Source of the DNA: Actinostola sp. cb2023
Taxonomy: Eukaryota; Cnidaria; Anthozoa; Actiniaria; Actinostolidae
Direction of reading: 5' to 3'
DNA length: 64,000 bases
NCBI GenBank assembly: GCA_033675265.1
Contig: JAUJYZ010000945.1
Span: 62,001 to 126,000 of the forward strand
Shown here in pieces: positions 9,501 through 61,950 of this stretch (positions within the stretch are counted from its first letter, which is position 1; each line of letters begins with the position of its first letter). The notes below the pieces were generated by a model, which worked only from the letters and a program-made list of their open reading frames with translations, did not search any database and was not told the DNA's origin. A program made the position numbers and the translations under genes.

Positions 9501-9737
9501 CTTACTGAGAGTATCTCTGAAGCCTTTAAGTGTTGTGTTTGTCTTAAAGTTTCTTCGTGGCCAGTAGTGTCCACATGTTGTGAGCGACTTCTAGGATGCA
9601 AAGATTGCCTAGCGCAGTGGTATAGTGGAGATGGAAACTGTCCATTTTGTAAGTGCATGGATGGGAAAGATAAGCATTTTGTTTTAAAGGGCATTGATGA
9701 GCTAAATACTGTACTTTCTAAACTTGAGTTAGCATAA
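6520..9737 (+). CDS. RING-finger protein, transposon accessory gene
   Basis: Three exons are visible: 6520-6624 (ATGGACTTCCAAGCG start, donor AAG|GTACGT), 8335-8840 (acceptor TTTTAG|GTGAC, donor GAG|GTATAA) and 9301-9737 (acceptor AAACAG|GTGAAG, stop 9735-9737). Phases join (0, then 1). Exon 2 needs one frame change between about 8560 and 8640, where an extra base or a missed splice moves the frame by +1; with one base removed the CDS is about 348 codons. The last exon encodes a basic linker (KKKRERSMGKGKKRKYK), a coiled-coil-like ELEEINEKLDALL, then a cysteine-rich RING: CCVC, TCCERLLGCKDC, NCPFC. The expected His is absent (all-Cys ligands). By family this would be an E3 ubiquitin ligase domain; activity is inferred. 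The gene converges on the transposase gene in the same element. Confidence 0.65.
6653..8047. mobile_element. 1.4-kb palindromic foldback element, 6-bp TSD
   Basis: The two halves are near-perfect inverted copies (arms about 6653-7240 and 7390-8047, with further inverted blocks near the axis). Termini are TATGGCGTTCCGTTACGG and its complement. GTAGTG flanks both sides (6647-6652, 8048-8053). It interrupts intron 1 of the RING gene, raising it from about 310 bp to 1.7 kb. Each arm holds the start of the same coding sequence: on the minus strand 7591-7385 reads MSEQSPQNIQDIVRAVVENL and continues into a Ser/Thr-rich stretch, and the left arm carries a plus-strand copy from 7066 that goes out of frame. 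It therefore looks like a head-to-head derivative of one end of a gene-bearing transposon. Confidence 0.85.
8860..9180. repeat. Degenerate ATTCT-rich tract in RING intron 2
   Basis: A T/ATTC-rich, short-period degenerate repeat (ATTCTATTC, CATTTCATT variants) fills most of the 8841-9300 intron. The apparent open frame here is compositional. Confidence 0.65.
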
Positions 9738-14049: not shown

Positions 14050-16953
14050 TAAAGTTTTATATACCGTGATCAATTTACTCTACCTTGATAAAGTTTTATA
14101 CTACCGTGATAAAAAATTCACTCTACCTTGATAAAGTTTTATACTACCGTGATAAAAAATTCACCTGGGAGTAGGGGTAGATTATACTACCGTGATACAT
14201 TCACTCTACCTTGATAAAGTTTTATACTACCGTGATAAAAAATTCACTCTACCTTGATAAAGTTTTATACTACCGTGATAAAAAAGTCACTCTACCTTGA
14301 TAAAGTTTTATATACCGTGATAAAAAAGTCACTCTACCTTGATAACTTTTATCAGACTACCGTGATAAAAAAAATCACTCTACCTTGATAAAGTTTTATA
14401 CTACAGTGATAAAAAAGTCACTCTACCTTCAGCAACGTTTTATACTGCCGTGATAACAAAAATTCACTCTACCTTGATAAAGTTTTATACTACCGTGATA
14501 AAAAAAATCACCTGGGGGTAGGGGTAGATTATACTACCGTGATAAAAAATTCACCTAGGGGTAGGGGTAGATTATACTACCGTGATACATCACTCTACCT
14601 TGATAAAGTTTTATACTACCGTGATAAAAAATTCACTCTACCTTGATAAAGGTTTATACTAACGTGATAAAAAAAATTCACCTGGGGGTAGGGGTAGATT
14701 ATACTACCGTGATACATTCACTCTACCTTGATAAAGTTTTATACTACCGTGATAAATAATTCACACTACCTTGATAAAGTTTTATACTACCGTGATAAAA
14801 AAAAATTCACCTGGGAGTAGGGGTAGATTATACTACCGTGATACATTCACTCTACCTTGATAAAGTTTTATACTACCGTGATAAAAAATTCACTCTACCT
14901 TGATAAAATTTTATACTACCGTGATAAAAAAGTCACTCTACCTTGATAAAGTTTTATACTACCGTGATAAAAAATTCACTCTACCTTGATAAAGGTTTAT
15001 ACTACCGTGATAAAAAATTCACCTGGGGGTAGGGGTAGATTATACTACCGTGATACATTCACTCTACCTTGATAAAGTTTTATACTACCGTGATAAATAA
15101 TTCACACTACCTTGATAAAGTTTTATACTACCGTGATAAAAAAAATTCACCTGGGAGTAGGGGTAGATTATACTACCGTGATACATTCACTCTACCTTGA
15201 TAAAGTTTTATACTACCGTGATAAAAAAAATCACTCTACCTTGATAACTTTTATACTACCGTGATAAAAAATTCACTCTACCTTGATAAAGTTTTATACT
15301 ACCGTGATAACAAATTTCACCTGGGGGTAGGGGTAGATTATACTACCGTGATAAATAATTCACTCTACCTGGATAAAGTTTTATACTACCGTGATAAAAA
15401 ATTCACCTGGGAGTAGGGGTAGATTATACTACCGTGATAAAAAAATTCACCTAGGGGTAGGGGTAGATTATACTACCGTGATACATTCACTCTACCTTGA
15501 TAAAGTTTTATACTACCGTGATAAAAAAGTCACTCTACCTTGATAAAGTTTTATACTACCGTGATAAATAATTCACACTACCTTGATAAAGTTTTATACT
15601 ACCGTGATAAAAAAAATTCACCTGGGAGTAGGGGTAGATTATACTACCGTGATACATTCACTCTACCTTGATAAAGTTTTATACTACCGTGATAAAAAAA
15701 TCACTCTACCTTGATAACTTTTATACTACCGTGATAAAAAATTCACTCTACCTTGATAAAGTTTTATACTACCGTGATAACAAATTTCACCTGGGGGTAG
15801 GGGTAGATTATACTACCGTGATAAATAATTCACTCTACCTGGATAAAGTTTTATACTACCGTGATAAAAAAATTCACCTGGGAGTAGGGGTAGATTATAC
15901 TACCGTGATAAAAAAATTCACCTAGGGGTAGGGGTAGATTATACTACCGTGATACATTCACTCTACCTTGATAAAGTTTTATACTACCGTGATAAAAAAG
16001 TCACTCTACCTTGATAAAGTTTTATGCTGCCGTGATAAAAAAATTCACCTAGGGGTAGGGGTAGATTATACTACCGTGATACATTCACTCTACCTTGATA
16101 AAGTTTTATACTACCGTGATAAAAAAGTCACTCTACCTTGATAAAGTTTTATGCTGCCGTGATAAAAAAATTCACCTGGGAGTAGGGGTAGATTATACTA
16201 CCGTGATACATTCACTCTACCTTGATAAAGTTTTATACTACCGTGATAAAAAATTCACTCTACCTTGATAAAGGTTTATACTACCGTGATAAAAAATTCA
16301 CCTGGGGGTAGGGGTAGATTATACTACCGTGATACATTCACTCTACCTTGATAAAGTTTTATACTACCGTGATAAAAAAGTCACTCTACCTTGATAAAAT
16401 TTTATACTACCGTGATAAAAAAGTCACTCTACCTTGATAAAGTTTTATACTACCGTGATAAAAAATTCACTCTACCTTGATAAAGGTTTATACTACCGTG
16501 ATAAAAAATTCACCTGGGGGTAGGGGTAGATTATACTACCGTGATACATTCACTCTACCTTGATAAAGTTTTATACTACCGTGATAAATAATTCACACTA
16601 CCTTGATAAAGTTTTATACTACCGTGATAAAAAATAATTCACCTGGGAGTAGGGGTAGATTATACTACCGTGATACATTCACTCTACCTTGATAAAGTTT
16701 TATACTACCGTGATAAAAAAGTCACTCTACCTTGATAAAGTTTTATGCTGCCGTGATAAAAAAATTCACCTGGGAGTAGGGGTAGATTATACTACCGTGA
16801 TACATTCACTCTACCTTGATAAAGTTTTATACTACCGTGATAAAAAAGTCACTCTACCTTGATAAAGTTTTATGCTGCCGTGATAAAAAAATTCACCTGG
16901 GGGTAGGGGTAGATTATACTACCGTGATACATTCACTCTACCTTGATAAAGTT
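14050..16953 (+). repeat. 43-bp satellite, block 1
   Basis: Two monomer types of 43 bp share TACCGTGATAAAAAATTCAC and end TTATAC. Type A continues TCTACCTTGATAAAG; type B continues CTGGGGGTAGGGGTAGA. A shortened join (CCGTGATACATTCACTC) usually follows type B. The A-run varies from about 5 to 9. Larger blocks repeat (for example 15020-15330 resembles 15520-15830), so there is higher-order structure. The same satellite lies in inverted orientation at 34465-46264 and 50541-53010. Open frames here are artefacts. Confidence 0.95.
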
Positions 16954-16984
16954 ATTTACTTAGTTCAGTGGTGACCGTTCATCT

Positions 16985-19051: not shown

Positions 19052-22000
19052 ATGAATTCCGAAAACGAAATATTGATCGCCGAGTTTAGACGGTTTCTTG
19101 AGACGAAAAAGGATCAGCCTCCAATGCGCTCTAGCGCTTCCGCGGTAACTAGTTCTTTGAGGGCCGATTCGAGTTTAGCCCAAAATGTTGGACGGGTTTT
19201 TTCAGCAGTGCACTTTCCACTCAGGCCACAGCTCCCACAGTATCGGCAATTGCTCAAGGCAATCGGCCTCAACTGCCTTCCATCAGACAGCCGGCTCATA
19301 GATACTCAGGGAGATACGTCCCTTACGGAAGGAAGAAAAAAAGTGACGAGAGAAGTTACGATATGAAGTTAATTCTCGTTGACTTCATTCCACAAGTGAT
19401 GGCGACTGGTCGGACTGAAAAATTTAATGGCACAACTCTTCTGGAATCTCCCTTCCGCGTTCAAGAGCGGGAGCTAAACACCAGCATCAGGAGAAAAATT
19501 TTCGGAATTATTCGATCTAGGTAAGTTCTGGTAGATAACTTTATACATGTACAAATGGTATATCTTAATTACTATCAGCTATATTTATTCTCCATTTTTA
19601 GTGAATAGAATTGTGCATTGAAATTGACTGGAGTGGGCTCTCAGGGTGACGTCAAGTTTATATCGTTTTCAAACATTGCCAAACCTTTATTAAGAGGGCA
19701 GCCCTTTGTCCAGTACGCTTAAGGCAGGGCGTAACGTTGGCTTAATATGTTATATTTTGGTTCAACATCTATTTTAAACAATTTAGGCTTCGTTTTCGTT
19801 TGCAGTACATAAACCCCTTTTGTCGTGCGTATTCGATAACAGCGAATTTACAGAATCGTGGGTGGTCTGCATTATATAGCACTAGTTGTCGCAATGTCAA
19901 TTAACACTGTCGTCCAAAGGTCGATTACGTACAGATATGTGTACTGACGGGGGGCTCCACCCAGAGGTTCAACCCCTTACCCTTTCATATGCCACTTCTT
20001 TTTTTATTTTGCAAATGAATTCAAATTATTGTTTGACATTACAGTAACAACAAGTCCCCTATGTTTGAAAAATGCAGGTATGCTTCTTATAATGGAGGTT
20101 TTCATTACGCTACAAGAAGCGGAAAGAAAACAAACTTCTGTTTAAGTCCACGTCAGGACCTCGATGGAAAAGAAGTCTACACGTTAAAGTCAAAGTCGAC
20201 TAACAATTTATATGTAATGCTGACTGAATCAGCATCTCCACCTTTGGAACCACCTTTGGAAGACAATGAAATCGAAGAGGAAATGGATAGCGATCATGTA
20301 TGTGTTTAATATCAGTAAAATTCAGCATTCATCAGCTAAACTCTTTTTCCATGCAGATACTTTTTTGTGGATTTTTTTACGGATCGGGATTAATTAAATC
20401 GTAAAATTTGCAAAAATGCTACACGGTATTTTAGAAAAAAAAAGCAAAATTTAGTTCGCGCGTATTGACTTCTTAAAAGATATCTCAAAATTCTTAAAAA
20501 ATTCATTATATTTCCCAAATTAATATTAATTTATGCTATTCACGCTGATATTCTCTTCTTTTTGTGCCGGAATACAGGACTGCGATCGTGGTATTCTACG
20601 ATTCCCAAACGTAGCCAGTGTTCCTCAACAGCAGTCGAGATTGGACAAAGAACGGCTGGTGAGTGTATGACTGCTAGATTTATTATCTCTATTATTTTTT
20701 ATGGTCTAAAAACACTAATAATGATGTAGATACATCATCACCATCACCGATATTGCGGGGCTACTCCAATATATATGCTATTTCCATATGTTATCATTGA
20801 ACCACAATAATAATAATTAATAATATTATTTTTATTATTATTACATTATCTAATTTCATTCCCTCTTTCTTGAAGGTTTCAGAACGCCAATCCAGGAAAG
20901 AAGATCTGGGCAGAAAGGTTAGTAAAAAATTAAGGCGATCTTCGGTTTGGAGGTTTTTTAATGTAGGAGCTTTCGGCTTCCAGACTGAAACCTTTAAGAC
21001 TAATGAACTATTTTCAATGTTATGGTGAACAGTGTATTAATAATATTTAATTGATTCAGATTATAATCGTTAATACTTAACTGAAACTAGTGTTTTTTTT
21101 TAATTCTGCAGTGGCGACGCGATACATTGTCGCGGTATCGTGCCGCTGAAAACGATTCAGATTCGAGCTCAGATGATGAAGGGGGGGTTGTATCTACCGA
21201 AACCATTGGTAGAAATACAGCCAAGGTAAAACTCATTTCATGTGACAGGTGTACTGAGTCAGTATGCATGGAAAGGATGCCCATCCCAAAATCCAAACGC
21301 GATCAACCTTGGGGCATTTTGTTTTCTTTCCCGGTGGAGGACATTTGGGCCAAGTGTGTGAAATTTTACTGACCGATTTATTAGGTCTTATTACCGGTAG
21401 TGGTTTTGTGGAAGAGCCCGGGGCATTTAATGTGATGTCTTTTATGGCATCAATTGTTGTACAGCAATTATATTACTCTTTACAAGTGTGAAAATTATTT
21501 TACGTCTCTAAATTTATTTCACTGACAGCCCTTTAATGGTCATCAAGTTGTGCTGAAGGAGAGCATCAGTTGCCAGGGAACCGGTATGTATCGCTTTGTA
21601 GAATGTCGCTTAGCTTAGCTACACTGCGTAGCCAGGCTCTAGGGGAAGGGAATGGGAGGGGGACAGGAAGGGGAAAAGTAGGGGGACTGGAGAGGAGGGA
21701 GAGGAGTTGGCCCCCTCTCCTCCAGTACCCCTCCCCTATTCCCCTTCCCCTCCCCTCCTTTCCCCTAGAGCCTGGCTACGCAGGCTGCGCAAGCGTTTCC
21801 GTGCTAAAATCTTGGAACTCTTTATTTATTGCCTTTAGGTGCATGTCATAATAATAAATAATAATAATCTTTATTTTAAGTGGGTTCACAAATCAATGAG
21901 TATGAGAAGTCATTGGAAACCCCGCCTAGTCCTCATTATCGGCTTTGAAATACTACAGTACAATTTCACGAAATTTATTTTCAGTACATTTGGGGAAAAA

Positions 22001-25000
22001 ATGGATCGCTGTCAGCCAATCAGAATCGAGAAATTATTTCATGTATATTATTATATAGGCAATGATTCATTAGTATTCGTAATTAGTTTAATAATTATAA
22101 AGTAATTTGTCGCTTGGTAATAGTTCGTGAAGTAGTTCGTAAGGTTACGTTTAATAACGTTCATGGTTCCTATTTTATCATAGTTTTTATAGTTACATAT
22201 GTATTTTATAGATGGAGGAAAAACTGTTACATGTCACCCGGCCCTCTGAAAATAAAGTTGATTATTATTATTAATTATTATTAATAAAAGGGTTTTACGA
22301 TCCGGCGAATGGACACTTCAGTAGTATCACTGCAGCATTGTCACTCCTTCAACATATCAAACCATTTATGGATTTGGTCGACTCAAGGAAAAGTCGTCTT
22401 TGCCAGTTACTAAATGAGGTTAGTGCAGTCATTGAAGATATAACCACCAGACCGCTGAAATATCGCTGGCGCGCACTGATAGTTAGAATTATCTGTAGGC
22501 TCTCGACCAATGAGAATACAGATACTGAGTACATTGTATTATAACGTGATTTCACAGGTAGCCCAAGCTCACCATTTGAAGCGTTATATAGAGATTGTGC
22601 AGTGTAAATTTATTAAAAAATACGATAAATCGTTTTTAAATTGATTGTAGTTGTTCTTTGTGAGTTTATTTAACTTTGGAAAAAATTTGGTGTCGCTACG
22701 ATTAAAACTAAGCGAGTTATAGCCATTTGAATTTTACCCTATGGTGTATACCCAAAAGTCGGACTCGACCAAGTTAATCCGAGGCGCTCGAGTTGCCAAC
22801 CTTCCCTTCTTCTTAGGGTCATAAATTTTAATAAATTTATACTGCACAATTCTCTATATAAAGCTTCAAACCTGTGGTGATTTGTTAGTTTCTCGCTATC
22901 AGTTAGATGTCTCTGCTGCGGACGGCATCGGCAAATAACTGATACAGCTCGCCACTGACAAATCACGATATTTTGCTCAACCTCGTCCAATAATTGCTTA
23001 TTATTATTCCACTCGTGCGTCATTTTACCATTAAGCTACTTGTAGCCTCTTCTTACGGCGTTTTATCCGAGATATTGGGTTTCGAGATATTGGGTTACCT
23101 GTGGTGGAGGTTAATTAACCCCCACCACAGGTAACCCAATATCCTCGGACCCAATATCTCGGATAAAACGCCGTAAGAAGAGGCTACAAGTAGCTTATTT
23201 TACCATATAAATGGACAAGAGAACAGCAAAATATGCCAGCGTATTACACAGTAGCTCGCGCGCGCACGAAAAACATAGCGAAAAACTGTCCAAAACTCTT
23301 CAGGAAAGAAAGAAACAAAATCAATTGTGGAATAATAAACCCCTTATTTGGTGGTTTGATATAATACTTGCTGATATTTTACTCATTGCTCGCATTTTCC
23401 TCGCCCCACGGGCTCAGAAAAATATGCAGATTTGACTCAGTCAGTACGTATTTAGTTTACATTTTGTTAGAAGTGGAAAATCATGATTTATATACGAATT
23501 CACCCGTGAAACAGATATTAGCCAAGTAGATATTACTAGACACTAATTCCATATTGTTTTCTTTTGTTTTGATTTGACTATTCAGTAGTCACTAACTATT
23601 AGATTTTGTTTCACGGGTTACGTGCCATCACTCCATATGCCTGTTATTTTATTATCGGGCTCTTTTTTTCAATCAGATATACCAGCTCAGAGGAGAAGCA
23701 GACAAAAGGATTGCAAATCCTTTCAAAGATTTGCTTTCACTGTTAGACCTTCCTGGTGATGCTGAGGCCATTGACGTGAATGAAATAGTCCAGAAACTTT
23801 TATCAAAAATACTTGAGAATGAGGTTTGTCCTTTTCCAATAGAGCCGTTGAAATAAGAATATAAAACGTAGTAATGTTTGATCTTATTTTCAGAATTGTG
23901 CAAGTAAAAGCATCTTCTCTGGCGTCAAAAAGTCCAAAGTCGACCTTGATTCTTCCATTACTGGAGAAGTGACATTGGAAACTACTGAAGTTTTAGGAAA
24001 TGGTCAGTCTATATATATTTCTGATATGAGCAATAATAATAATTCCTAAAGATTTAAATGTCATAAAACTAATGTTTGGTCTTTATATCTGGATAAACAA
24101 TTCCTATTTGAACAAATTTCGGGGACGGGTTAAACATCGGGGGATGACCGACCGTTTGCGCCGCTTCCAAATGTCAGTTCAATCCGCTATGACGTTTTTG
24201 GTTAGGATCTCTCGATCGATTTTCATTCTCAGTTACATTTGGGTGAAAAAGTTGAGCCATTACGAAGTTCGTGTTGCAGAGATCGATGGCGACCTATAAC
24301 TTCCAAAGTGTATTTTATAGAACCCTACTAAGTGCCCCACTGATGCTCTAGAATCCAGCGTTGCTGAACTAGCACCGTAGAGCACCGCTGGATTCTAGAG
24401 CATCATGTAAGTGCCTAAGACATGAAAAATATTAAATATTTCTGCCCGGCAAACAATCCATGATTATAGCCTCCTCCACAGGCAACTCCTTTGAACTTTG
24501 GGGTTCCCCGGCACAGAGCGATGCATGCGGAGGAGGCTCAGTACCATAATCAGTTGTAACTAGTTATGGTTTTGTGTAGTTGATACTTATGCTTACATTA
24601 TTATACTATGTAGGCAAGCCTTTTCATGCTGTTGGATTTCCCGCTCCATTACAATCCAGTAACGAGCCGATGTGCCTGCGAGATTTGTTAAGTCTCGAAA
24701 TAAACGAAGCGATCGTAATACCATACGATGACTGGGAAGAAGCCTGGAAGGATAAATACCCCCAAGAACAAGAAGCGACGGGTATAAATTTGTTCTCATG
24801 AGTTTAAGAAAAAAAACTGTTTTAAAAGCTGTTTTCTTCTTCTGAAACAGATATGGATAAAACACTTTACTGCACAAAGAGGGTATTTTGGGATACAACC
24901 CCAGAAGTGGTCACCTTAATTTTGAAAAGAACCATACCGGGACAACAGAGCAAGGCAAGACATAAATAACTAACGGTTCATTAAATTATTACTAATTCGA

Positions 25001-27311
25001 AAGCACTTTCATAATTCATACTTTTCTTGCTCATTGAATCATCGAATAATCATTAATGCCAATCATTATGTATTGCAGAATAATAGAATGATTAGTATTC
25101 CAAGGGACATACCCGAATTGGACTTCATCCACCCTGAAAACGAGTGTATCCATTCCAAAGACTCCGCCTCAAACACAAGCTTTTTCCTGTTTGGAATGAT
25201 TGTGAAAGCAGAAAATACAGAGCACGATTTTGCAGTTGTCCGTATCGGCAAAGATTCTAATTCATGGTAAGTTTCATATTCATGCATGCCTGGGCCGCGT
25301 TGATAGTTAGTATAGAGATAATATGTTATACATGATCAAAAGCAAAAAAAAAACATTATTTCACCAGGTTCCCCGACAGGGTGCGGAATCACTATTTGCT
25401 AACTTACATTAGAACCACCTCATTTATTTTACAGGGTTGTTCATGATAATCTAAACACCTACGAGGTAGATATGACAGACGAGCTCTTAAAGAATCTTGG
25501 TGGAGGCGAGCATAGAGATTCGTCAAGTATCCTTTGAAATCAATGATTTAATACAATGATCCGTCACATAGCCGGCTGTAGGATATCTATTGAAAACAGA
25601 TCAAACAAAGTGTAACAAATCAGCTTGCTATACTGTATATCCATTTGTTATATTCCTTCACAAATTAATGATACAGTTACATTTGTCTATTTAAAAAGCT
25701 GGGAATCAACTGTAGTGAAAGTGCCTATTCCCGACAAGGCTATTCAAAAGGAAATCTTCTCAAGGTATATTCACTATAGTAAAATCACTATATATATATT
25801 CGACAAATAGTATATCATTTATATACTAGGCCAACATGCAGACTATTTACTAAGCTTTTTCACAGGCAGCCCAACCATTGCTTCTGAGGCTACTAAATAA
25901 TTCAATAAAATGTTATTTGAGTCTTTCTTTGATGGGTTTCCTGTGGTAGAGCGCGCGCACAATCGGCGGGCTCCCTGTACTTGCTAAGTACGCATTACGC
26001 GCGCGCTCTACCACAGAAAACCCATCAATAAAATACGCGCGAATGTAGCTGTATTTAATTTCTATTTATTATTTAACAGGTTTGGTCCAAACCCCATAGA
26101 TTGTATTGTCGTAGGTGATGAGGCCGCACCAGGTAAAATGATATGATAGTTCACAAATATAAGTCATATAAGGCTAAGCAGTGTTTTATATACCGTATTT
26201 CCTCGATTAAGCGCTAACCCACGATTAAGCTCCCCTCTCGCAAGAAATATGTCATGTATTACAGTTAGTCGCGGCCGTCGGTGTTAAAGTTATGTTTCTG
26301 AGTTCAATTCACGTTTTTATATTAAGGGAATTTCATGTTACTGTAGAATTCCGATAGTATACGGCTACCCGAAAGTAACGGTTACCCGAAAGTAGCGGCC
26401 CCTTTGGCCTGCTAAATTCGAAAGTAACGGCGACCGCTATTATCGGAATTCTACGGTATTTCATCTTTTCGAATACTACCGCAAGCAAACACGCCCGCTT
26501 TATGAGATGATATAGAATTGAATTGTTCTTCTGACTACTTTATCTCAATTTTCCGTAGTGGACTATCAAAGCGTATTTCATTCTGTTGAAGAGAAAACCA
26601 GAGACTTTGTTGGCTTAGAACCATTAAAGCAGCAGTTCCTTCGCTTTGCCAAAACAGAAATACTCAACGAAAAGAGAAAGGGCCTTGGTTACAGAGTCAA
26701 CAATGGCTCTGTAAACCATTTCATATTCCAGGGTAATCCCGGTACTGGGAAGACGACCTTCGCGAGAAAAGTTGCAGGTAATTGGGATTTGCCACGTATT
26801 TCAGACTATGCTGATTTAACTTAACCTCCTTTGCAGACGTTTTAGTTGATTCGCTTTTCTCTCAACACAAGAGAAAATCTCTCAACACAAGAGAAAAGCG
26901 AATCAACTAAGACGTCTGCAAAGGAGGCTAGATTTAACTTGAGTTTCAGGCTTTTTGTGGCGGAGGGGGAGAGAAAAAGGAAGAGTGAAGAAAAGAGACA
27001 AAATCCTTCTTCTCCTCTCCTCTCCCCCTCTCTTCCCCCTTCCTTTTCGGAAGCCAGATTCTCATAATTCCTAAAAGGCGGTCAGCTATTGCGATCGCCA
27101 CTAGTTGAACCGCTTCTTACAGACACGGGCCGTACAAGTACTATACAATATGGACACTTTCCTATAACTGATAGTTCTGAATCGGTCCGCCCCGACAAAT
27201 TACACACAAATTTTACCCTGTATTAATACGGACACCTCTGCATATTATTTTAGTAACGCTCAAAACTGAAAGTTAGATGTCAAGTGTGAAAAGGATGTTG
27301 TTATACTTAGC

Positions 27312-27404
<93 letters not shown>

Positions 27405-28154
27405 GCGTATTATATTTGTTAATTATAGATCTCCTACACAGTATCCGGAAGATAAAAAAAAACAAGGTTGTATAGAGGTCCAGAGGGGGGACCTTGTCGG
27501 ACAATATGTCGGTTCAACAGAGCAGAAGACCAAGGGTAAGATAAAAGAAGCAAAGGGTGGCGTGCTTTTCATTGACGAGGCATACAGGTTGACCCCAAGA
27601 AGCGACAAAGTGGACTATGGTAGAATTGCCATTAATCAATTAATGGCATCAATGGAGACAGGAGATCCGGTAATGATCTTTGCCGGATATCCCAAGGATA
27701 TGCTATTGTTCTTACAGTCTAATCCGGGATTGAAATCAAGGATCAATTATAAATTCAATTTCCCGGATTATTCTGCTAGAGAATTAGGTGAGATCTTATT
27801 CAATAAGATCTCACAAAGCGGGTTCAAGTATGGTGGCAATATCGATCAGCTGGCTGACATCTTAACACAACACACAAGCTCCTCAAGCCGCAGCCAACAA
27901 AATGGCAGGCTTGTGAAAAAAACATTTTGTCGGAGGCCATTATAAATTTAAGTAACCGCCTGTCTTTTGAAGATAGTGGTTCAAAGCTCATCACCCTAGA
28001 CGATGACGATATAACATCCGGCTGCAAAATGTTTGGGGAGCTGGAGAATGCTGACGACATGACTGCATCAGCAAGTGGCGACAACGACAGTAAAGGGGAC
28101 GGCGGCGACGCTGCCCAAGAACAGGAAAAAGAATCCGTCGACGCCTCACTATAG
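19052..28154 (+). CDS. USP-like (pseudo-protease) + CbbX-type AAA ATPase
   Basis: Predicted exons: 19052-19520, 20045-20297, 20578-20658, 20876-20917, 21112-21225, 21529-21583, 22291-22418, 23677-23823, 23894-24002, 24614-24781, 24851-24954, 25079-25266, 25435-25526, 25677-25764, 26080-26132, 26559-26777, 27429-28154. Phases agree, giving about 1,012 residues. One intron is GC-AG (24955). Three sites need one added base (T-run near 19200, A-runs near 27460 and 27920), probably sequencing errors. Residues 1-240: unknown domain, then acidic Ser/Asp linker. Residues 335-660 read as a USP (C19) fold: FYDPANGHFSSITAAL aligns with the Cys box but has His at the Cys position; TPEVVTLILKRT, then EHDFAVVRI (His about 606) and WVVHDN (Asp about 624). 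Residues 700-1,000: AAA of the CbbX/SpoVK type, Walker A GNPGTGKTT (about 756), Walker B VLFIDEAY (about 816), Arg finger NPGLKSR (about 875). A likely ubiquitin-binding scaffold coupled to an ATP-driven remodeller; function inferred. Confidence 0.75.
21624..21783. mobile_element. Foldback element in intron 6
   Basis: CTGCGTAGCCAGGCTCTAGG and its complement (ending CCTGGCTACGCAG) flank purine/pyrimidine-rich arms of GGGGAAGGG type. It resembles the ends of the 3845-4804 element in motif and composition. Confidence 0.75.
22576..22872. repeat. Inverted pair in intron 7
   Basis: TATATAGAGATTGTGCAGTG with TAAATTTATTAAAA on the left is matched by the complement near 22824-22872 (TTTTAATAAATTTATACTGC...). 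It is a probable foldback element of about 300 bp. Confidence 0.55.
23032..23197. mobile_element. 166-bp MITE with 9-bp TSD, intron 7
   Basis: The arms TAAGCTACTTGTAGCCTCTT and complement run almost the full length, with a small central palindrome (CACCACAGGTAACCC). TTTTACCAT is duplicated exactly at 23023-23031 and 23198-23206. A 9-bp duplication fits a Mutator-like origin, by inference. Confidence 0.85.
23502..23618. mobile_element. MITE, same family as 9771-9910
   Basis: ACCCGTGAAACAG and complement TTTCACGGGT flank a core with CTAATTCCATATTGTTTTCT that matches the element at 9771-9910. Confidence 0.65.
24337..24407. mobile_element. 71-bp MITE with 8-bp TSD, intron 9
   Basis: The arms GATGCTCTAGAATCCAGCG and complement form a hairpin. 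TAAGTGCC is duplicated at 24329-24336 and 24408-24415. An 8-bp duplication is usual for hAT-type elements. Confidence 0.75.
24469..24538. mobile_element. Short foldback, intron 9
   Basis: GCCTCCTCCACAGGC and GCATGCGGAGGAGGC flank about 40 bp; the outer flanks TGATTATA and CATAATCA also pair imperfectly. Confidence 0.5.
25930..26027. mobile_element. Foldback element, intron 14
   Basis: The stem TGATGGGTTTCCTGTGGTAG with GAGCGCGCG pairs with the complement at 26000-26027, leaving a loop of about 35 bp. Confidence 0.65.
26339..26458. mobile_element. Foldback element, intron 15
   Basis: TACTGTAGAATTCCGATAGT and ATTATCGGAATTCTACGGTA are inverted copies. The loop holds short CCGAAAGTA(A/G)CGG repeats. 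Confidence 0.6.
26825..26927. mobile_element. Foldback element, intron 16
   Basis: The arms CCTCCTTTGCAGACGTTTTA and onward (37 bp) are inverted at 26891-26927. The centre holds a direct duplication of TCTCAACACAAGAGAAA. Confidence 0.75.
27312..27404. repeat. (AAT)n microsatellite, about 93 bp
   Basis: Uninterrupted AAT units just upstream of the acceptor of the last exon of the USP-like/AAA gene. Confidence 0.95.
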
Positions 28155-32935: not shown

Positions 32936-34442
32936 TTAAGTTTGTGTTGACAGAATATTTGCTACACAGTTCACAGTTTTAAGATAAATATCTACTCCAA
33001 AATTTACACTGTTCGATAAAGGATCGACTTCATGAGCAAGAATGTGCATCTGATTTTTAGCCAACGGACAAATAGGCTCCATTACTGTAACAGATGTGCT
33101 GTCATCATCATCATCACTGACAAGCGAAGTGCTCGGCAAATCAATGCCATAGCAACTGATATCAGGATTTCTAATATCTTCTACAGCAGTATAACCGAAG
33201 AAATCAACACTGATGACCCCTGCTATCCATCGTTGATAAGGCGTCTGGTTACATTCGATGATTCCATCCCAATCTAAACTCTTCTAAAGCTCTGTTAATA
33301 CGTGGAGTGAACACGTAATGCAGGCAAAATCTATCAGTATCGTTACTGAGATCTAGAAGGCCTTCCACTTCTAGGTAACTAAATACGCAATAAAAGGTAG
33401 ACAAACAACAGCGCGTGGTGTCTCTGTGTAGTCTCTCTATCCTTTGATTGTAGACAGAAGATCCTGCTATGTGTGATCCACGGTCTCTTCCTCTTACCGA
33501 CTCCATGTATCTGGCCACCTCAGTATTTTCCCCTCCATAATCCGTACGAATACGCGACGGTATCCCATATCTTCTTGTACCCCCAAGAAAGCTTGAAAAG
33601 ACTGTTGCTGCTCTGTTATTTGTGGCACATGTAAGGAACACTATTAGCCGCGAATAGCCATCGATTCCTCCATGAACTACGAAACCCCACTTGATTAGTT
33701 TGTGGAGACCATCTATATGCCATAACGCGTTAGGTCCAGGAACGTTGTATTGGTATCGGGGATGCATAGCTCGCCATCGCAAAGCGGTGTTGATAGGATC
33801 AATTCTTCGAATAATATCCCTTACACGATGTCTAGCAACATATATACCTCTTGAACGCAGGATACCTAGGACCATCCGCTCACCACAATTAACAAAGTTC
33901 GCCTTGACATCACCGATCTGACGTTCCAGCTCCGCACTAGAAATGTCAGTAAACCGTGTTTGCTGAAAATCGTAGTTTACCTCTTTTAACCTTCGCCAAA
34001 GAGTTGTTCGCGATGTGCATAACGTATAGCATATTCTCGACCAAGTAAAACGCCAAGTGCGAAGGTATTCAATTTGCGTCAGATTAACCACAATTCTTGG
34101 CCTTCCAACCATACCAGTCCTGTTGACAAGAACCTCTGGCAGAATTATAGAACTATAGGTAGAAGAATCAATGCGAAATAATTGTGTTTCGACGTCGTCA
34201 ATAAGACCTCCAATGGCATTGCTTAACCGTTTTACATTTTCATTGACATTAAGGGCAACATGGTCTTCAACAGATCCTTCCAAAGCAGCCCGAATAATCC
34301 TCTCACAGGCAGTTCTGTTAACCTGCAACCTTAAAAGGAATTCTTGCAGTGAATTTGAATCTGATTCGTGAAGTCTTCTCTCAACTTCTTCACAAAGTTT
34401 AGAAACACAATCAAGAAAAGTCGTCCATTGATCCTCCGCCAT
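32936..34442 (-). pseudogene. DDE integrase-type transposase, single exon, frameshifted
   Basis: One open frame runs 34442-33249 (397 residues). It continues in another frame from about 33253 to 32936 (NQTPYQRWIAGV..., CYGIDLPSTS, acidic DDDDDS), so a small deletion near 33254 splits a protein of about 500 residues. The N-terminal half is helical with a helix-turn-helix-like WSRICYTLCTSRTTLWRRL. The core shows the three catalytic residues: Asp in NALWHIDGLHKL, then GGIDGYSRLIVF and NNRA; Asp in RTDYGGEN; Glu in NQRIERLHRD. This is the eukaryotic integrase-core family (rva_4 type as I recall). It resembles the 10272-12604 transposase in order and spacing but lacks introns in the core. Only about 22 bp separate its start codon from satellite block 2. 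Confidence 0.8.
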
Positions 34443-34464
34443 TATTTTAAAATGCTACGTAGAA

Positions 34465-37400
34465 GAATCCACCCCTACCCCCAGGTTACTTTTTTATCAC
34501 GGTAGTATAAAACTTTATCAAGGTAGAGTGAATTTTTTATCACGGTAGCATAATCTACCCCTGCCCCCAGGTGAATTTTTTTATCACGGTAGAGTGAACT
34601 TTTTTATCACGGTAGTATAATCTACCCCTACCCCCAGGTGAATTTTTTTACCACGGTAGTATAAAACTTTATCAAGGTAGAGTGACTTTTTCACCACGGC
34701 AGTATAAAAGTTATCAAGGTAGAGTGATTTTTGTTATCACGGTAGTATAAAACTTTATCAAGGTAGAGTGATTTTTTTTTATCACGGTAGTATAAAACTT
34801 TATCAAGGTAGAGTGAATTTTTTTTATCACGGTAGTATAAAACGTTATCAAGGTAGAGTGAATGTATCACGGTAGTATAATCTACCCCTACCCCCAGGTG
34901 AATTTTTTTACCACGGTAGTATAAAACTTTATCAAGGTAGAGTGACTTTTTTATCACTGGAGTATAAAAGTTATCAACGTAGAGTGAATTTTTTATCACG
35001 GTAGTATAAAACTTTATCAAGGTAGATTGAATTTTTTCATCACGGTAGTATAAAACTTTATCAAGGTAGAGTGAATTTTTTTATCACGGTAGTATAAAAC
35101 TTTATCAAGGTAGAGTGACTTTTTTATCACGGCGGTATAAAAGTTATCAAGGTAGAGTGAATTTTTTTATCACGGTAGTATAAAACTTTATCAATCAAGG
35201 TAGACGGTAGTATGACTTTTTAGAGTGAATTTTTTTTATCACGGTAGTATAAAACTTTATCAAGGTAGAGTGAATGTATCACGGTAGTATAATGTACCCC
35301 TACCCCCAGGTGAATTTTTTTACCACGGTAGTATAAAACTTTATCAAGGTAGAGTGAATTTTTTATCACGGTAGTATAAAACTTTATCAAGGTAGAGTGA
35401 ATGTATCACGGTAGTATAATCTACCCCTACCCCCAGGTGAATTTTTTTTACCACGGTAGTATAAAACTTTATCAAGGTAGAGTGACTTTTTTATCACGGC
35501 AGTATAAAAGTTATCAAGGTAGAGTGATTTTTTTATCACGGTAGTATAAAACTTTATCAAGGTAGAGTGCCTTTTTTATCACGGCAGTATAAAAGTTATC
35601 AAGGTAGAGTGAATTTTTTATCACGGTAGTATAAAACTTTATCAAGGTAGAGTGAATGTATCACGGTAGTATAATCTACCCCTACCCCCAGGTGATTTTT
35701 TTATCACGGTAGTATAAAACTTTATCAAGGTAGAGTGACTTTTTTATCACGGCAGTATAAAAGTTATCAAGGTAGAGTGAATTTTTTATCACGGTAGTAT
35801 AAAACTTTATCAAGGTAGAGTGATTTTTTTTTATCACGGTAGTATAAAACTTTATCAAGGTAGAGTGACTTTTTTATCACGGCAGTATAAAACTTTATCA
35901 AGATAGAGCGAGTGTATTACGGTAGTATAATCTACCCCTACCCCCAGGTGAATTTTTTTATCACGGTAGTATAAAACGTTATCAAGGTAGAGTGACTTTT
36001 TTATCACGGTAGTATAAAACTTTATCAAAGTAGAGTGATTTTTTTTGATCACGGTAATATAAAACTTTATCAAGGTAGAGTGAATTTTTTATCACGGTAG
36101 TATAAAACTTTATCAAGGTAGAGTAAATTCAGTTATCACGGTAGTATAAAACTTTATCAAGGTAGAGTGAATGTATCACGGTAGTATAATCTACCCCTAC
36201 CCCCAGGTGATTTTTTTTTAACACGGTAGTATAAACCTTTATCAAGGTAGAGTGAATTTTTTATCACGGTAGTATAAAACTTTATCAAAGTAGAGTGATT
36301 TTTTTTGATCACGGTAATATAAAACTTTATCAAGGTAGAGTGAATTTTTTATCACGGTAGTATAAAACTTTATCAAGGTAGAGTGAATTTTTTTTATCAC
36401 GGTAGTATAAAACTTTATCAAGGTAGAGTGAATTTTTTATCACGGTAGTATAAAACTTTATCAAGGTAGAGTGAATTTTTTATCACGGTAGTATAAAACG
36501 TTATCAAGGTAGAGTGAATGTATCACGGTAGTATAATCTACCCCTACCCCCAGGTGATTTTTTTTTAACACGGTAGTATAAACCTTTATCAAGGTAGAGT
36601 GAATTTTTTATCACGGTAGTATAAAACTTTATCAAAGTAGAGTGATTTTTTTTTATCACGGTAATATAAAACTTTATCAAGGTAGAGTGAATTTTTTATC
36701 ACGGTAGTATAAAACTTTATCAAGGTAGAGTAATTTTTTTATCACGGTAGTATAAAACTTTATCAAGGTAGATTGAATTTTTTCATCACGGTAGTATAAA
36801 ACTTTATCAAGGTAGAGTGACTTTTTTATCACGGTAGTATAAAACTTTATCAAGGTAGAGTGAATGTATCACGGTAGTATAATCTACCCCTACCCCCAGG
36901 TGAATTTTTTTACCACGGTAGTATAAAACTTTATCAAGGTAGAGTGACTTTTTTATCACGGTAGTATAAAACTTTATCAAGGTAGAGTGATTTTTTTTTT
37001 ATCACGGTAGTATAAAACTTTATCAAGGTAGAGTGATTTTTTTTTATCACGGTAGTATAAAACTTTATCAAGGTAGAGTGAATTTTTTATCACGGTAGTA
37101 TAAAACTTTATCAAGGTAGAGTGAATGTATCACGGTAGTATAATCTACCCCTACCCCCAGGTGATTTTTTTATCACGGTAGTATAAAACTTTATCAAGGT
37201 AGAGTGACATTTTTTTATCACGGCAGTATAAAAAGTTATCAAGGTAGAGTGAATTTTTTATCACGGTAGTATAAAAACTTTATCAAGGTAGAGTGATTTT
37301 TTTTATCACGGTAGTATAAAACTTTATCAAGGTAGAGTGACTTTTTTATCACGGTAGTATCAAGGTAGAGTGAATGTACGGTAGTATAATCTACCCCTAC

Positions 37401-40400
37401 CCCCAGGTGATTTTTTTTATCACGGTAGTATAAAACTTTATCAAGGTAGAGTGACTTTTTTATCACGGCAGTATAAAAAGTTATCAAGGTAGAGTTTTTT
37501 TTTATCACGGTAGTATAAAACTTTATCAAGGTAGAGTGACTTTTTTTTTTTATCACGGTAGTATAAAACTTTATCAAGGTAGAGTGACTTTTTTTTTATC
37601 ACGGCAGTATAAAACTTTATCAAGATAGAGTGAGTGTATTCACGGTAGTATAATCTACCCCTACCCCCAGGTGAATTTTTTTTTTATCACGGTAGTATAA
37701 AACTTTATCAAGGTAGAGTGACTTTTTTTATCACGGTAGTATAAAACTTTATCAAAGTAGAGTGATTTTTTTTGATCACGCGGTAATATAAAACTTTATC
37801 AAGGTAGAGTGAGTTTTTTTTATCACGGTAGTATAAAACTTTATCAAGGTAGAGTAAATTTTTTATCACGGTAGTATAAAACTTTATCAAGGTAGATTGA
37901 ATTTTTTTATCACGGTAGTATAAAACTTTATCAAGGTAGAGTGAATTTTTTTATCACGGTAGTATAAAACTTTATCAAGGTAGAGTGAATGTATCACGGT
38001 AGTATAATCTACCCCTACCCCCAGGTGATTTTTTTTTAACACGGTAGTATAAACCTTTATCAAGGTAGAGTGATTTTTTATCACGGTAGTATAAAACTTT
38101 ATCAAAGTAGAGTGATTTTTTTTGATCACGGTAATATAAAACTTTATCAAGGTAGAGTGAATTTTTTTTATCACGGTAGTATAAAACTTTATCAAGGTAG
38201 AGTGAATTTTTTTATCACGGTAGTATAAAACTTTATCAAGGTAGAGTAAATTTTTTTATCACGGTAGTATAAAACTTTATCAAGGTAGAGTGATTTTTTT
38301 TTATCACGGTAGTATAAAACTTTATCAAGGTAGTGAGTGAGTATTTTTATCACGGTAGTATCACGGTAGTATAAAACTTTATCAAGGTAGAGTGATTTTT
38401 TTTTAAAATCACGGTAGTATAAAACTTTATCAAGGTAGAGTGACTTTTTTATCACGGTAGTATAAAACTTTATCAAGGTAGAGTGATTTTTTGTATCACG
38501 GTAGTATAAACTTTATCAAAGTAGAGTGATTTTTTTTATCACGGTAGTATAAAACTTTATCAAGGTAGAGTGATTTTTTTATCACGGTAGTATAAAACTT
38601 TATCAAGGTAGAGTGATTTTTTTATCACGGTAGTATAAAACTTTATCAAGGTAGAGTGAATTTTTTTTATCACGGTAGTATAAAACTTTATCAAGGTAGA
38701 GTGAATTTTTTTTTTTATCACGGTAGTATAAAACTTTATCAAGAGTAGAGTGAATGTATCACGGTAGTATAATCTACCCCTACCCCCAGGTGATTTTTTT
38801 TATCACGGTAGTATAAAACTTTATCAAGGTAGAGTGACTTTTTTTATCACGGCAGTATAAAACTTTATCAAGGTAGAGTATTTTTTTTATCACGGTAGTA
38901 TAAAAACTTTATCAAGGTAGAGTTTTTTTATCACGGTAGTATAAAACTTTATCAAGGTAGAGTGATTTTTTTTTATCACGGTAGTATAAAACTTTATCAA
39001 GGTAGAGTCAAGGTAGATATAAAACTTTATCAAGGTAGAGTGATTTTTTTTATCACGGTAGTATAAAACTTTATCAAGGTAGAGTGATTTTTTTATCACG
39101 GTAGTATAAAACTTTATCAAGGTAGAGTATTTTTTTTATCACGGTAGTATAAAACTTTATCAAGGTAGAGTGATTTTTTTTATCACGGTAGTATAAAACT
39201 TTATCAAGGTAGAGTGATTTTTTTATCACGGTAGTATAAAACTTTATCAAGGTAGTAGAGTGATTTTTTTATCACGGTAGTATAAAACTTTATCAAGGTA
39301 GAGTGATTTTTTTATCACGGTAGTATAAAACTTTATCAAGGTAGAGTGATTTTTGTATCACGGTAGTATAATCTACCCCTACCCCCAGGTGAATTTTTTT
39401 TATCACGGTAGTATATAAAACTTTATCAAGGTAGAGTTTTTTTTTTTATCACGGTAGTATAAAACTTTATCAAGGTAGAGTGATTTTTTTTTATCACGGT
39501 TGTATAAAACTTTATCAAGGTAGAGTGATTTTTTTTAATCACGGTAGTATAAAACGTTATCAAGGTAGAGTGATTTTTTTTTATCACGGTAGTATAAAAC
39601 TTTATCAAGGTAGAGTGAATGTATCACGGTAGTATAATCTACCCCTACCCCCAGGTGATTTTTTTTTATCACGGTAGTATAAAACTTTATCAAGGTAGAG
39701 TTTTTTTTTATCACGGTAGTATAAAACTTTATCAAGGTAGAGTGATTTTTTTTTATCACGGTAGTATAAAACTTTATCAAGGTAGAGTGAGTATAAAACT
39801 TTTTTTTATCACGGTAGTATAAAACTTTATCAAGGTAGAGTGATTTTTTTTTTATCACGGTAGTATAAAACTTTATCAAGGTAGAGTGAATGTATCACGG
39901 TAGTATAATCTACCCCTACCTCCAGGTGATTTTTTTTTATCACGGTAGTATAAAACTTTATCAAGGTAGAGTGACTTTTTTATCACGGCAGTATAAAACT
40001 TTATCAAGGTAAGATTTTTTTTATAGAGCGAGTGTATTACGGTATCACGGTAGTATAATCTACCCCTACCCCCAGGTGAATTTTTTTATCACGGTAGTAT
40101 AAAACTTTATCAAGGTAGAGTGAATTTTTTATCACGGTAGTATAAAACTTTATCAAGGTAGAGTGAATTTTTTTTATCACGGTAGTATAAAACTTTATCA
40201 AGGTAGAGTGATTTTTTTTATCACGGTAGTATAAAACGTTATCAAAGATCAAGGTAGAGTGAATGTTTATCACGGTAGTATAATCTACCCCTACCCCCAG
40301 GTGATTTTTTTTATCACGGTATATAAAACTTTATCAAGGTAGAGTGAGTTTTTTTCATCACGGTAGTATAAAACTTTATCAAGGTAGAGTGATTTTTTTT

Positions 40401-50540: not shown

Positions 50541-53010
50541 TTTCGTGGCAGTATATAAAACTTTATCAAGATAGAGTGAATGTATCACGGTAGTATAATC
50601 TACCCCTACCCCCAGGTGATTTTTTTATCACGGTAGTATAAAACTTTATCAAGGTAGAGTGACTTTTTTATCACGGCAGTATAAAAGTTATCAAGGTAGA
50701 GTGATTTTTTTTATCACGGTAGTATAAAACTTTATCAAGGTAGAGTGATTTTTTTTTATCACGGTAGTATAAAACTTTATCAAGGTAGAGTGAATTTTTT
50801 TTATCACGGTAGTATAAAACGTTATCAAGGTAGAGTGAATGTATCACGGTAGTATAATCTACCCCTACCTCCAGGTGATTTTTTTATCACGGTAGTATAA
50901 AACTTTATCAAGGTAGAGTGACTTTTTTATCACGGCAGTATAAAACTTTATCAAGATAGAGCGAGTGTATTACGGTAGTATAATCTACCCCTACCCCCAG
51001 GTGAATTTTTTTATCACGGCAGTATAAAAGTTATCAAGGTAGAGTGAATTTTTTATCACGGTAGTATAAAACTTTATCAAGGTAGAGTGAATTTTTTTTA
51101 TCACGGTAGTATAAAACTTTATCAAGGTAGAGTGATTTTTTTATCACGGTAGTATAAAACGTTATCAAGATAGAGTGAATGTATCACGGTAGTATAATCT
51201 ACCCCTACCCCCAGGTGATTTTTTTATCACGGTAGTATAAAACTTTATCAAGGTAGAGTGACTTTTTTATCACGGCAGTATAAAAGTTATCAAGGTAGAG
51301 TGATTTTTTTTTATCACGGTAGTATAAAGCTTTATCAAGGTAGAGTGATTTTTTTTTATCACGGTTGTATAAAACTTTATCAAGGTAGAGTGAATTTTTT
51401 TAATCACGGTAGTATAAAACGTTATCAAGGTAGAGTGAATGTATCACGGTAGTATAATCTACCCCTACCTCCAGGTGATTTTTTTATCACGGTAGTATAA
51501 AACTTTATCAAGGTAGAGTGACTTTTTTATCACGGCAGTATAAACCTTTATCAAGATAGAGCGAGTGTATTACGGTAGTATAATCTACCCCTACCCCCAG
51601 GTGAATTTTTTTATCACGGCAGTATAAAAGTTATCAAGGTAGAGTGAATTTTTTATCACGGTAGTATAAAACTTTATCAAGGTAGAGTGAATTTTTTTTA
51701 TCACGGTAGTATAAAACTTTATCAAGGTAGAGTGATTTTTTTATCACGGTAGTATAAAACGTTATCAACAGATCAAGGTAGAGTGAATGTTCACGGTAGT
51801 ATAATCTACCCCTACCCCCAGGTGATTTTTTTTATCACGGTATTATAAAACTTTATCAAGGTAGAGTGACTTTTTCATCACGGTAGTATAAAACTTTATC
51901 AAGGTAGAGTGAATTTTTTATCACGGCAGTATAAAACTTTATCAAAGTAGAGTGATTTTTTTGATCACGGTAATATAAAACTTTATTAAGGTAGAGTGAT
52001 TTTTTTGATCACGGTAATATAAAACTTTATTAAGGTAGAGTGATTTTTTTATCACGGTAGTATAAAACTTTATCAAGGTAGAGTGAATGTATCACGGTAG
52101 TATAATCTACCCCTACCCCCAGGTGAATTTTTTTTACCACGGTAGTATAAAACTTTATCAAGGTAGAGTGACTTTTTTATCACGGCAGTATAAACCTTTA
52201 TCAAGATAGAGCGAGTGTATTACGGTAGTATAATCTACCCCTACCCCCAGGTGAATTTTTTTATCACGGCAGTATAAAAGTTATCAAGGTAGAGTGAATT
52301 TTTTATCACGGTAGTATAAAACTTTATCAAGGTAGAGTGAATTTTTTTTATCACGGTAGTATAAAACTTTATCAAGGTAGAGTGATTTTTTTATCACGGT
52401 AGTATAAAACGTTATCAACAGATCAAGGTAGAGTGAATGTTCACGGTAGTATAATCTACCCCTACCCCCAGGTGATTTTTTTTATCACGGTATTATAAAA
52501 CTTTATCAAGGTAGAGTGACTTTTTCATCACGGTAGTATAAAACTTTATCAAGGTAGAGTGAATTTTTTATCACGGTAGTATAAAACTTTATCAAGGTAG
52601 AGTGAATTTTTTTTATCACGGTAGTATAAAACTTTATCAAGGTAGAGTGACTTTTTTATCACGGCAGTATAAAACTTCATCAAGATAGAGTGAATGTATC
52701 ACGGTAGTATAATCTACCCCTACCCCCAGGTGATTTTTTTTTATCACGGTAGTATAAAACTTTATCAAGATAGAGTGACTTTTTTATCACGGCAGTATAA
52801 AAGTTATCAAGGTAGAGTGATTTTTTTTATCACGGTAGTATAAAACTTTATCAAGGTAGAGTGATTTTTTTTTATCACGGTGGTATAAAACTTTATCAAG
52901 GTAGAGTGAATTTTTTTTATCACGGTAGTATAAAACGTTATCAAGATAGAGCGAGTGTATTACGGTAGTATAATCTACCCCTACCCCCAGGTGATTTTTT
53001 TATCACGGTT
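50541..53010 (-). repeat. 43-bp satellite, block 3 (inverted)
   Basis: Same orientation as block 2 and originally continuous with it. A higher-order unit of about 600-650 bp is clear: the GCGAGTGTATTACGGTAGTA variant recurs near 50950, 51560 and 52210. The array ends at 53010 in a broken monomer. Confidence 0.95.
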
Positions 53011-61897: not shown

Positions 61898-61950
61898 GTC
61901 CCTCACCACGCCCCACACCTCTACTCTCATCTCGCCCCACCCAGACTGCA

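What the first reader, a model, noticed from the sequence alone, without database searches (positions are those of the whole stretch)
19052..28154. Fusion of a USP-like domain, probably without its catalytic Cys, to a CbbX/SpoVK AAA ATPase
The spliced frame joins a C19-like core (Cys-box-like segment at 22291-22418; LKR segment in the exon at 24851-24954; His box in the exons at 25079-25266 and 25435-25526) to an AAA module with Walker A, Walker B and an Arg finger. In the Cys-box alignment, NGHFSS puts His where Cys is expected, while the later His and Asp positions are kept. CbbX-type ATPases remodel partner proteins. A pseudo-deubiquitinase attached to one would suggest a ubiquitin-guided unfoldase or scaffold. 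I know of no described protein with this order.
Basis: partly seen in the sequence, partly recalled or inferred. Interest (0 to 1): 0.8.

Follow-up and report, generated by a model that had tools for sequence, protein, structure and literature searches.

The report
Coral USP-like and AAA fusion gene
A stony-coral gene family joins a ubiquitin-protease-like domain to a bacterial-type unfolding motor in one protein; the copy in this window has serine in place of the protease's key cysteine and may be broken by small frame errors.

Summary
The domain order is real. A 17-exon gene model at 19052-28154 encodes an N-terminal domain, a linker, a degenerate USP-like (C19/UCH) domain and a SpoVK/CbbX/EccA-clade AAA+ module. 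Predicted proteins of five coral species have the same order over 92-100% of the searched region. The USP call rests on Pfam UCH: the P. evermanni piece scores 25.0 bits (cut-off 23.9), D. pertusum 20.6; three other coral pieces and the window have no hit. AlphaFold was too weak to decide the fold. 'His where Cys is expected' is wrong: aligned with relatives the column is Cys in 3 of 5 sequences and Ser in two, the window (AGT, 22320-22322) and D. pertusum. The putative His and Asp are kept. So the Cys loss belongs to some copies, not to the architecture. The window copy also has three frame breaks: one in about 19200-19243, one in 27454-27475, one at A7 27916-27922. Assembly error and recent decay could not be told apart; no reads or own-genome search were available. 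Nine literature searches gave no paper I recognised as describing this combination.

The parts
19052..19520 (+). Exon 1: start Met and first part of the N-terminal domain (MKLILVDFI...); holds frame break 1, somewhere in about 19200-19243
   Evidence: Three of seven N-terminal fragments from unnamed sources (P0121, P0126, P0127), which resemble P. evermanni P0004, match first in frame 2 (VGRV segment) and then in frame 1 (NRPQLPS...SGRYVPYG)
20078..20297 (+). Exon 2: rest of the N-terminal domain (...DLDGKEVYTLKSKSTNNLYVML)
   Evidence: 54% identical to P0004 over 153 aa together with exon 1; no Pfam or significant PDB match
20578..21225 (+). Exons 3-5 (20578-20658, 20876-20917, 21112-21225): acidic linker
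   Evidence: In-frame GT-AG joins; 18-30% identity to the four coral relatives that cover it
21529..22418 (+). Exons 6-7 (21529-21583, 22291-22418): start of the USP-like domain and Cys-box segment GFYDPANGHFSSITAALSLLQ; Ser codon AGT at 22320-22322 in the Cys column
   Evidence: Alignment to P0001, P0003, P0004 (Cys) and P0023 (Ser)
23677..24002 (+). Exons 8-9 (23677-23823, 23894-24002): middle of the USP-like domain
   Evidence: Alignment A1; tblastn with P0001 for exon 8
24614..24954 (+). Exons 10-11 (24614-24781, 24851-24954): LRDLLS segment and LILKR segment; GC donor after 24954
   Evidence: tblastn with P0001 and P0004; splice check
25079..25764 (+). Exons 12-14 (25079-25266, 25435-25526, 25677-25764): His box EHDFAVVRI at 25220-25246 (His codon 25223-25225), Asp in WVVHDN, TFVYLKS segment
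   Evidence: phmmer to the CYLD USP domain (2vhf) E 1.2, not significant; His and Asp in 4 of 5 relatives
26080..26777 (+). Exons 15-16 (26080-26132, 26559-26777): link and AAA+ N-part with Walker A GNPGTGKTT at 26732-26758
   Evidence: Pfam AAA E 1.2e-11; CbbX 3zuh/3syk E about 3e-36
27429..28154 (+). Exon 17: rest of AAA+ (QYVG 27502-27519, Walker B 27556-27591, NPGLKSRI 27721-27744), lid and acidic tail; frame breaks 2 (27454-27475) and 3 (A7 27916-27922)
   Evidence: tblastn with P0001 in frame 1 from 27457 to 27918, then frame 3 to 28094; DLLHSIRKIKKNKVV in another frame seen by eye

Best explanation
The locus is a member of a stony-coral gene family that encodes one protein with a small N-terminal domain, a degenerate ubiquitin-specific-protease (USP) domain and a single CbbX/SpoVK-clade AAA+ ring subunit. 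The likely mode of action (inferred): the AAA part forms a hexamer that pulls a polypeptide through its pore with an aromatic pore loop and ATP hydrolysis, and the USP domain sits at the entry side as the ubiquitin-recognising part. In copies with a complete Cys-His-Asp set (Acropora, Porites) it would trim ubiquitin as the substrate is remodelled. In the window copy, with Ser for Cys, it would at most bind ubiquitin without cutting. Shown: the domain order, its presence in predicted proteins of five corals, the Ser codon, and the AAA motifs. Inferred: ubiquitin binding, hexamer, unfolding. Open: whether this copy is expressed, given its three frame breaks.
For: Five of the 120 listed hits are coral proteins covering 92-100% of the USP+AAA query. 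Pfam UCH hits the P0004 piece above its cut-off (E 1.7e-5) and the P0023 piece below it (3.7e-4), 2 of 5 pieces; UniRef calls P0004 'USP domain-containing protein'. SpoVK TIGR02881 (best E 4.6e-62) and CbbX TIGR02880 (best 6.3e-54) hit 6 of 6 members. CbbX structures match at E about 5e-56 with the profile of five corals and at about 3e-36 with the window's own AAA. Of columns identical in the corals P0001-P0004 (at least three present), the window changes 19 of 135 in AAA (14.1%), 51 of 143 in USP (35.7%) and 23 of 37 in the linker (62.2%), as expected of a protein under selection until recently.
Against: The window's own USP segment has no Pfam match and no significant PDB match, nor have the P0001, P0002 and P0003 pieces any Pfam match (3 of 5 miss). 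With the longer pieces of A2 only 1 of 6 members hit UCH, at E 9e-4, and UCH is not among the 25 of 38 families shown for whole proteins. PDB searches with A2, A4 and P0004 pieces found no USP. Both AlphaFold models are poor here (513 of 770 and 303 of 374 residues under pLDDT 50), and Foldseek gave no match at E 0.001 for the USP model; USP14 appears at E 1.7. The Pfam match of P0004 starts after the Cys box. The three frame breaks may mean this copy is dead.
Confidence: 0.6

Rival explanations
1. The window copy is a decaying pseudogene of that coral family: it lost the Cys and then picked up small indels; the fusion works only in other species or in another copy of this genome.
For: Three frame breaks plus Cys to Ser in one copy; the window is more distant from each of P0001-P0004 than they are from each other (USP 42-47% against 51-88%, AAA 67-71% against 73-86%).
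Against: All 16 splice junctions are GT-AG or GC-AG, the model with frame-keeping splices has no stop, the AAA motifs are intact and AAA changes least. The larger distance could also mean a more distant species.
Confidence: 0.3
2. The frame breaks are assembly errors at homopolymers and the gene is intact; the Ser is real, so this species has a catalytically dead USP on an AAA ring.
For: Of six runs of 6 or more identical bases in the coding exons, three (T6, A9, A7) lie in or at the edge of the three break intervals. Coding similarity continues on both sides of each break.
Against: No reads were available. Break 1 is placed only to about 40 nt, and break 2 also fits a change in GTATAG 27470-27475, 8-13 nt after the A9 run, judged by eye against KKRKVVEVQ of relatives. 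The other three runs show no break.
Confidence: 0.4
3. The middle domain is not a USP but an unrelated coral domain that resembles one by motif only.
For: No Pfam hit for 3 of 5 coral pieces and for the window; no USP in PDB profile searches; poor models.
Against: One piece passes the Pfam UCH cut-off and a second is close; Cys, His and Asp motifs fall in the expected order and are shared by Acropora and both Porites. I also read a palm-like strand order in the full model, at low confidence.
Confidence: 0.15
4. Two neighbouring genes (USP-like and AAA) wrongly joined by gene prediction.
For: No transcript data were available here; the coral proteins are predicted models, and how they were made was not checked.
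Against: Models from Acropora, Oculina, two Porites and Desmophyllum join the same two domains at the same place.
Confidence: 0.05

Closest known systems
CbbX (red-type Rubisco activase) / SpoVK / EccA clade of AAA+ proteins
   Same: Walker A GNPGTGKTT, QYVG aligned with QYIG, LFIDEAY Walker B, NPG-SRI segment; AAA_lid_6 in 4 of 6 members; E about 5e-56 to CbbX structures by profile
   Different: Below the equivalog cut-offs of CbbX (181.8 of 459.25 bits), SpoVK (208.8 of 422.95) and EccA (160.6 of 466.65) for P0001; carries a USP-like domain; in an animal
USP (peptidase C19, Pfam UCH) deubiquitinases
   Same: Pfam UCH above cut-off in P. evermanni; Cys/His/Asp motif order in Acropora and Porites
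   Different: Very divergent; the window copy has Ser for Cys, and Asp aligned with the Asn of the Cys box
CYLD
   Same: Only PDB match of the window's domain up to E 10 (2vhf, His-box region, E 1.2, not significant)
   Different: No CAP-Gly domain among the Pfam matches of the window protein; AAA module instead
p97/VCP with its deubiquitinases, and the proteasome with USP14/RPN11 (recalled)
   Same: Couples ubiquitin handling to an AAA unfoldase
   Different: There the two activities are separate polypeptides; here one chain (inference)

Membership tests
USP / peptidase C19 (Pfam UCH) | Profile match above the curated cut-off | tested here: inconclusive
   P0004 piece 25.0 bits (cut-off 23.9), P0023 piece 20.6; P0001, P0002, P0003 and the window none; longer pieces 1 of 6 at E 9e-4
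USP / peptidase C19 (Pfam UCH) | Catalytic Cys in the Cys box | tested here: not met
   Window Ser (AGT 22320-22322); Cys in P0001, P0003, P0004; Ser in P0023; P0002 does not cover it
USP / peptidase C19 (Pfam UCH) | Catalytic His and Asp | tested here: met
   EHDF and WVVHDN in the window; His and Asp in 5 of 6 sequences of A1, both missing in P0023; assigned by motif, USP patterns recalled
USP / peptidase C19 (Pfam UCH) | USP fold | tested here: inconclusive
   AlphaFold pLDDT mostly under 50, on P0001 and not on the window protein; Foldseek without a significant match
USP / peptidase C19 (Pfam UCH) | Ubiquitin cleavage or binding | not testable with these tools
   Needs a biochemical assay
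AAA+ ATPases, SpoVK/CbbX/EccA clade | AAA profile above cut-off and Walker A/B, Arg finger | tested here: met
   Pfam AAA 45.6 bits (cut-off 21.2) for the window; motif coordinates; CbbX structures
CbbX proper | NCBIfam equivalog cut-off | tested here: not met
   181.8 of 459.25 bits for P0001; scores of the other members were not shown
SpoVK proper | NCBIfam equivalog cut-off | tested here: not met
   208.8 of 422.95 bits for P0001; scores of the other members were not shown
CYLD | CAP-Gly domains before the USP domain | tested here: not met
   None in the Pfam list of the window protein
CYLD | USP domain most like CYLD | tested here: inconclusive
   Single phmmer match at E 1.2; no PDB match with coral pieces

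The most novel reading that the evidence does not exclude
Stony corals have a one-chain ubiquitin-guided unfoldase, built by joining a USP deubiquitinase to a bacterial-type CbbX/SpoVK ring motor; in some species the USP has lost its Cys and became a ubiquitin-docking platform for the motor.
Probability: 0.35. Interest if true: 0.7.

Novelty: new variant of a known kind. Interest (0 to 1): 0.5.

Why it matters
Eukaryotes normally bring deubiquitinases to AAA unfoldases as separate partners (recalled). A single chain joining a USP domain to a CbbX-type motor, found in predicted proteins of Acropora, Porites, Oculina and Desmophyllum, would be a compact natural system for asking how ubiquitin removal and unfolding are coupled, and what an animal does with a CbbX/SpoVK-type motor. 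The mixture of Cys and Ser copies would allow presumably active and dead versions to be compared.

Tried and rejected
His at the Cys column: rejected by alignment with the four relatives that cover it. Intron 19145-19224 and acceptor 27475/27476 (used in the model): both keep the frame open, but the first removes sequence that P0121, P0126 and P0127 keep and the second removes 15 residues that P0001-P0004 and CbbX keep; P0023 lacks the same 15 residues, so a real splice variant is not excluded. Ubiquitin-like fold for the N-terminal domain: my impression from the strand/helix pattern only; the PDB profile search gave nothing (best E 0.47, a C-type lectin). Mitochondrial insert as the cause of the GC-skewed stretch near 36-46 kb: rejected, it coincides with a 43-bp minisatellite.

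Searches of low power: (alignment A2) scored only the 7994 candidates sharing most words and returned P0004 and seven N-terminal fragments, missing the known members P0001, P0002, P0003 and P0023, so its absences say little. Scans of virus and prokaryote contigs with the USP alignment and of prokaryote contigs with the AAA part found no relative; since one search shows that bacterial AAA relatives exist, at least was not sensitive.

Not achieved: own-genome search for a second copy (genome search busy); species not identified beyond a likely relative of stony corals (inferred from the relatives); origin of the AAA part not tested by a tree.
Full report
What is there. A 17-exon model, 19052-28154 on the + strand, has 15 GT-AG introns and one GC-AG intron. 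With frame-keeping splices it gives 888 residues up to 27942. The protein has a conserved N-terminal domain (about residues 78-180 of that model), an acidic linker, a USP-like domain (283-641) and an AAA+ module (660 onward). Pfam finds AAA in the window protein (E 1.2e-11); two further P-loop families, Sigma54_activat and Mg_chelatase, barely pass their cut-offs over the same region.

Relatives. The protein search with residues 283-870 found 6711 proteins among 7995 scored candidates and listed 120. Five of the 120 are coral proteins that cover both domains: Acropora millepora P0001 (52% identity, 100% of the query), Oculina patagonica P0002 (53%, 92%, N-terminally short), Porites lobata P0003 (48%, 96%), P. 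evermanni P0004 (48%, 94%) and Desmophyllum pertusum P0023 (38%, 99%). The other 115 cover 23-46% of the query and carry AAA accessions; I take the match to be the AAA part but did not look at the coordinates. A search with the USP part of P0001 alone returned five proteins, P0001-P0004 and an A. cervicornis model that looks joined to other sequence, P0128; P0023 was not among them. No relative of the USP part was found in virus or prokaryote contigs, in scans of limited sensitivity. The order is thus shared among corals. Wider occurrence in animals is not excluded, because the protein search needs shared exact words and a length window.

Is it a USP? The P. evermanni piece hits Pfam UCH at E 1.7e-5, 25.0 bits against a cut-off of 23.9; D. 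pertusum at 3.7e-4, 20.6 bits; the pieces of P0001, P0002 and P0003 and the window have no hit. With longer pieces 1 of 6 members hit, at E 9e-4. UniRef names P0004 'USP domain-containing protein'. The window's own domain finds one solved structure up to E 10, the CYLD USP domain, at E 1.2 over the His-box region; this is a lead only, and coral pieces did not repeat it. AlphaFold on whole P0001 gave pLDDT under 50 for residues 1-474, and on the USP pieces a mean of 38.1. Foldseek on that second model had no match at E 0.001 or better, with USP14 tenth at E 1.7. So USP membership is probable for the family from sequence and unproven by fold.

The catalytic residues. In the alignment of six sequences the Cys column reads Cys in P0001, P0003 and P0004, Ser in P0023 and in the window, and is not covered by P0002. 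The window codon is AGT at 22320-22322. The His (NHQY, NHHY, EHDF) and Asp (WIVHD, WVVHD) motifs are present in 5 of 6 and missing in P0023. That these are the catalytic His and Asp is assigned by motif, from recalled USP patterns. The window also has Asp where the four covering corals have Asn at the start of the box, and one extra residue. No Cys-box-like segment was seen between 21584 and 22290 in the translation.

The AAA module. NCBIfam SpoVK, CbbX and EccA models hit 6 of 6 members (best E 4.6e-62, 6.3e-54, 5.2e-47); for P0001 the scores lie below all three equivalog cut-offs. CbbX structures 3syk and 3zuh match at E about 5e-56 with the profile of five corals and about 3e-36 with the window's own segment, and Foldseek ranks CbbX first to fourth for whole P0001. 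Walker A, the QYVG segment aligned with QYIG of CbbX, Walker B with its Glu, and the NPG-SRI segment are present. That QYIG is the CbbX pore loop and that the Arg is a finger are recalled.

Frame breaks. Of the seven N-terminal fragments from unnamed sources, I aligned three (P0121, P0126, P0127): they match exon 1 first in frame 2 (the VGRV segment) and then in frame 1, so the frame changes somewhere in about 19200-19243; P0126 and P0127 also carry a weaker frame-2 match on to 19249. Downstream, P0001 matches the window in frame 1 from 27457 to 27918 and then in frame 3, around A7 27916-27922. Before that, DLLHSIRKIKKNKVV resembles DLLYSVRKIKKRKVV of P0001 in another frame, seen by eye, so a second change lies in 27454-27475, which holds A9 and GTATAG. 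There are six runs of six or more identical bases in the exons; three lie in or at the edge of the break intervals. Assembly error or recent indels both fit; reads would decide. Constraint differs by domain: of columns identical in P0001-P0004, the window changes 19 of 135 in AAA, 51 of 143 in USP and 23 of 37 in the linker; the N-terminal domain had only 3 such columns.

How it probably works. The AAA part resembles single-ring remodelling motors. The USP part sits on its N-terminal side, where such motors usually carry recruiting domains (recalled). The most likely mechanism is recruitment of ubiquitinated partners by the USP domain followed by threading. Copies with Cys would also cut ubiquitin; copies with Ser would only hold it. 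None of this has been tested.

Literature. Searches of the held open-access library for CYLD with CbbX, CbbX with deubiquitin-, three of the four terms AAA ATPase, ubiquitin-specific protease, scleractinia and CbbX, stage V sporulation protein with cnidaria, CYLD with AAA+ ATPase and domain fusion, pseudo-deubiquitinase with AAA, LOC114951485 and deubiquitinase with Acropora and AAA ATPase returned no paper. CYLD with coral returned 36 papers, of which 20 were listed; I saw titles and starts of abstracts only, and none named such a fusion. Databases already hold automatic models of the coral proteins, so the proteins are recorded; I found no paper that describes the combination.

Verdict. The pseudo-enzyme claim needs the correction from His to Ser and from family to copy. 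The window copy itself may not be functional.

Noticed in passing
window 14050-16960, 34580-46264, 50616-53009: The same 43-bp minisatellite (TTTATCACGGTAGTATAAAAC...) forms three large arrays or groups of arrays, the longest about 11.7 kb; it coincides with the low-GC, GC-skewed stretch.
   Followed up: partly
window 54144-59164: A 70-bp satellite of about 72 copies, 96% matches.
   Followed up: no
window 33252-34454 (-): Open 401-aa frame with an integrase core domain (PF24764, E 7.5e-71), probably a DDE-type transposable element.
   Followed up: partly
window 9297-9734 (+): ORF with a weak RING finger match (PF13639, E 6.4e-4, below cut-off), upstream of the fusion gene.
   Followed up: no
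window 60380-62871 (+): Overlapping ORFs with PNMA similarity (E 7.7e-8) and weak aspartyl-protease similarity, probably a retroelement.
   Followed up: no
window 53754-54020 (-): Stretch that reads like the last exon of an NADP isocitrate dehydrogenase (recalled pattern; no Pfam match), directly beside the 70-bp satellite.
   Followed up: no
P0121-P0127 and P0004, residues before the USP domain: A conserved ~100-aa N-terminal domain without Pfam or PDB relatives found; its strand-helix-strand pattern looks like a beta-grasp to me.
   Followed up: partly
P0023 (Desmophyllum pertusum): Divergent relative that has lost the putative Cys, His and Asp and lacks the 15 residues after Walker A in its deposited model.
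   Followed up: partly
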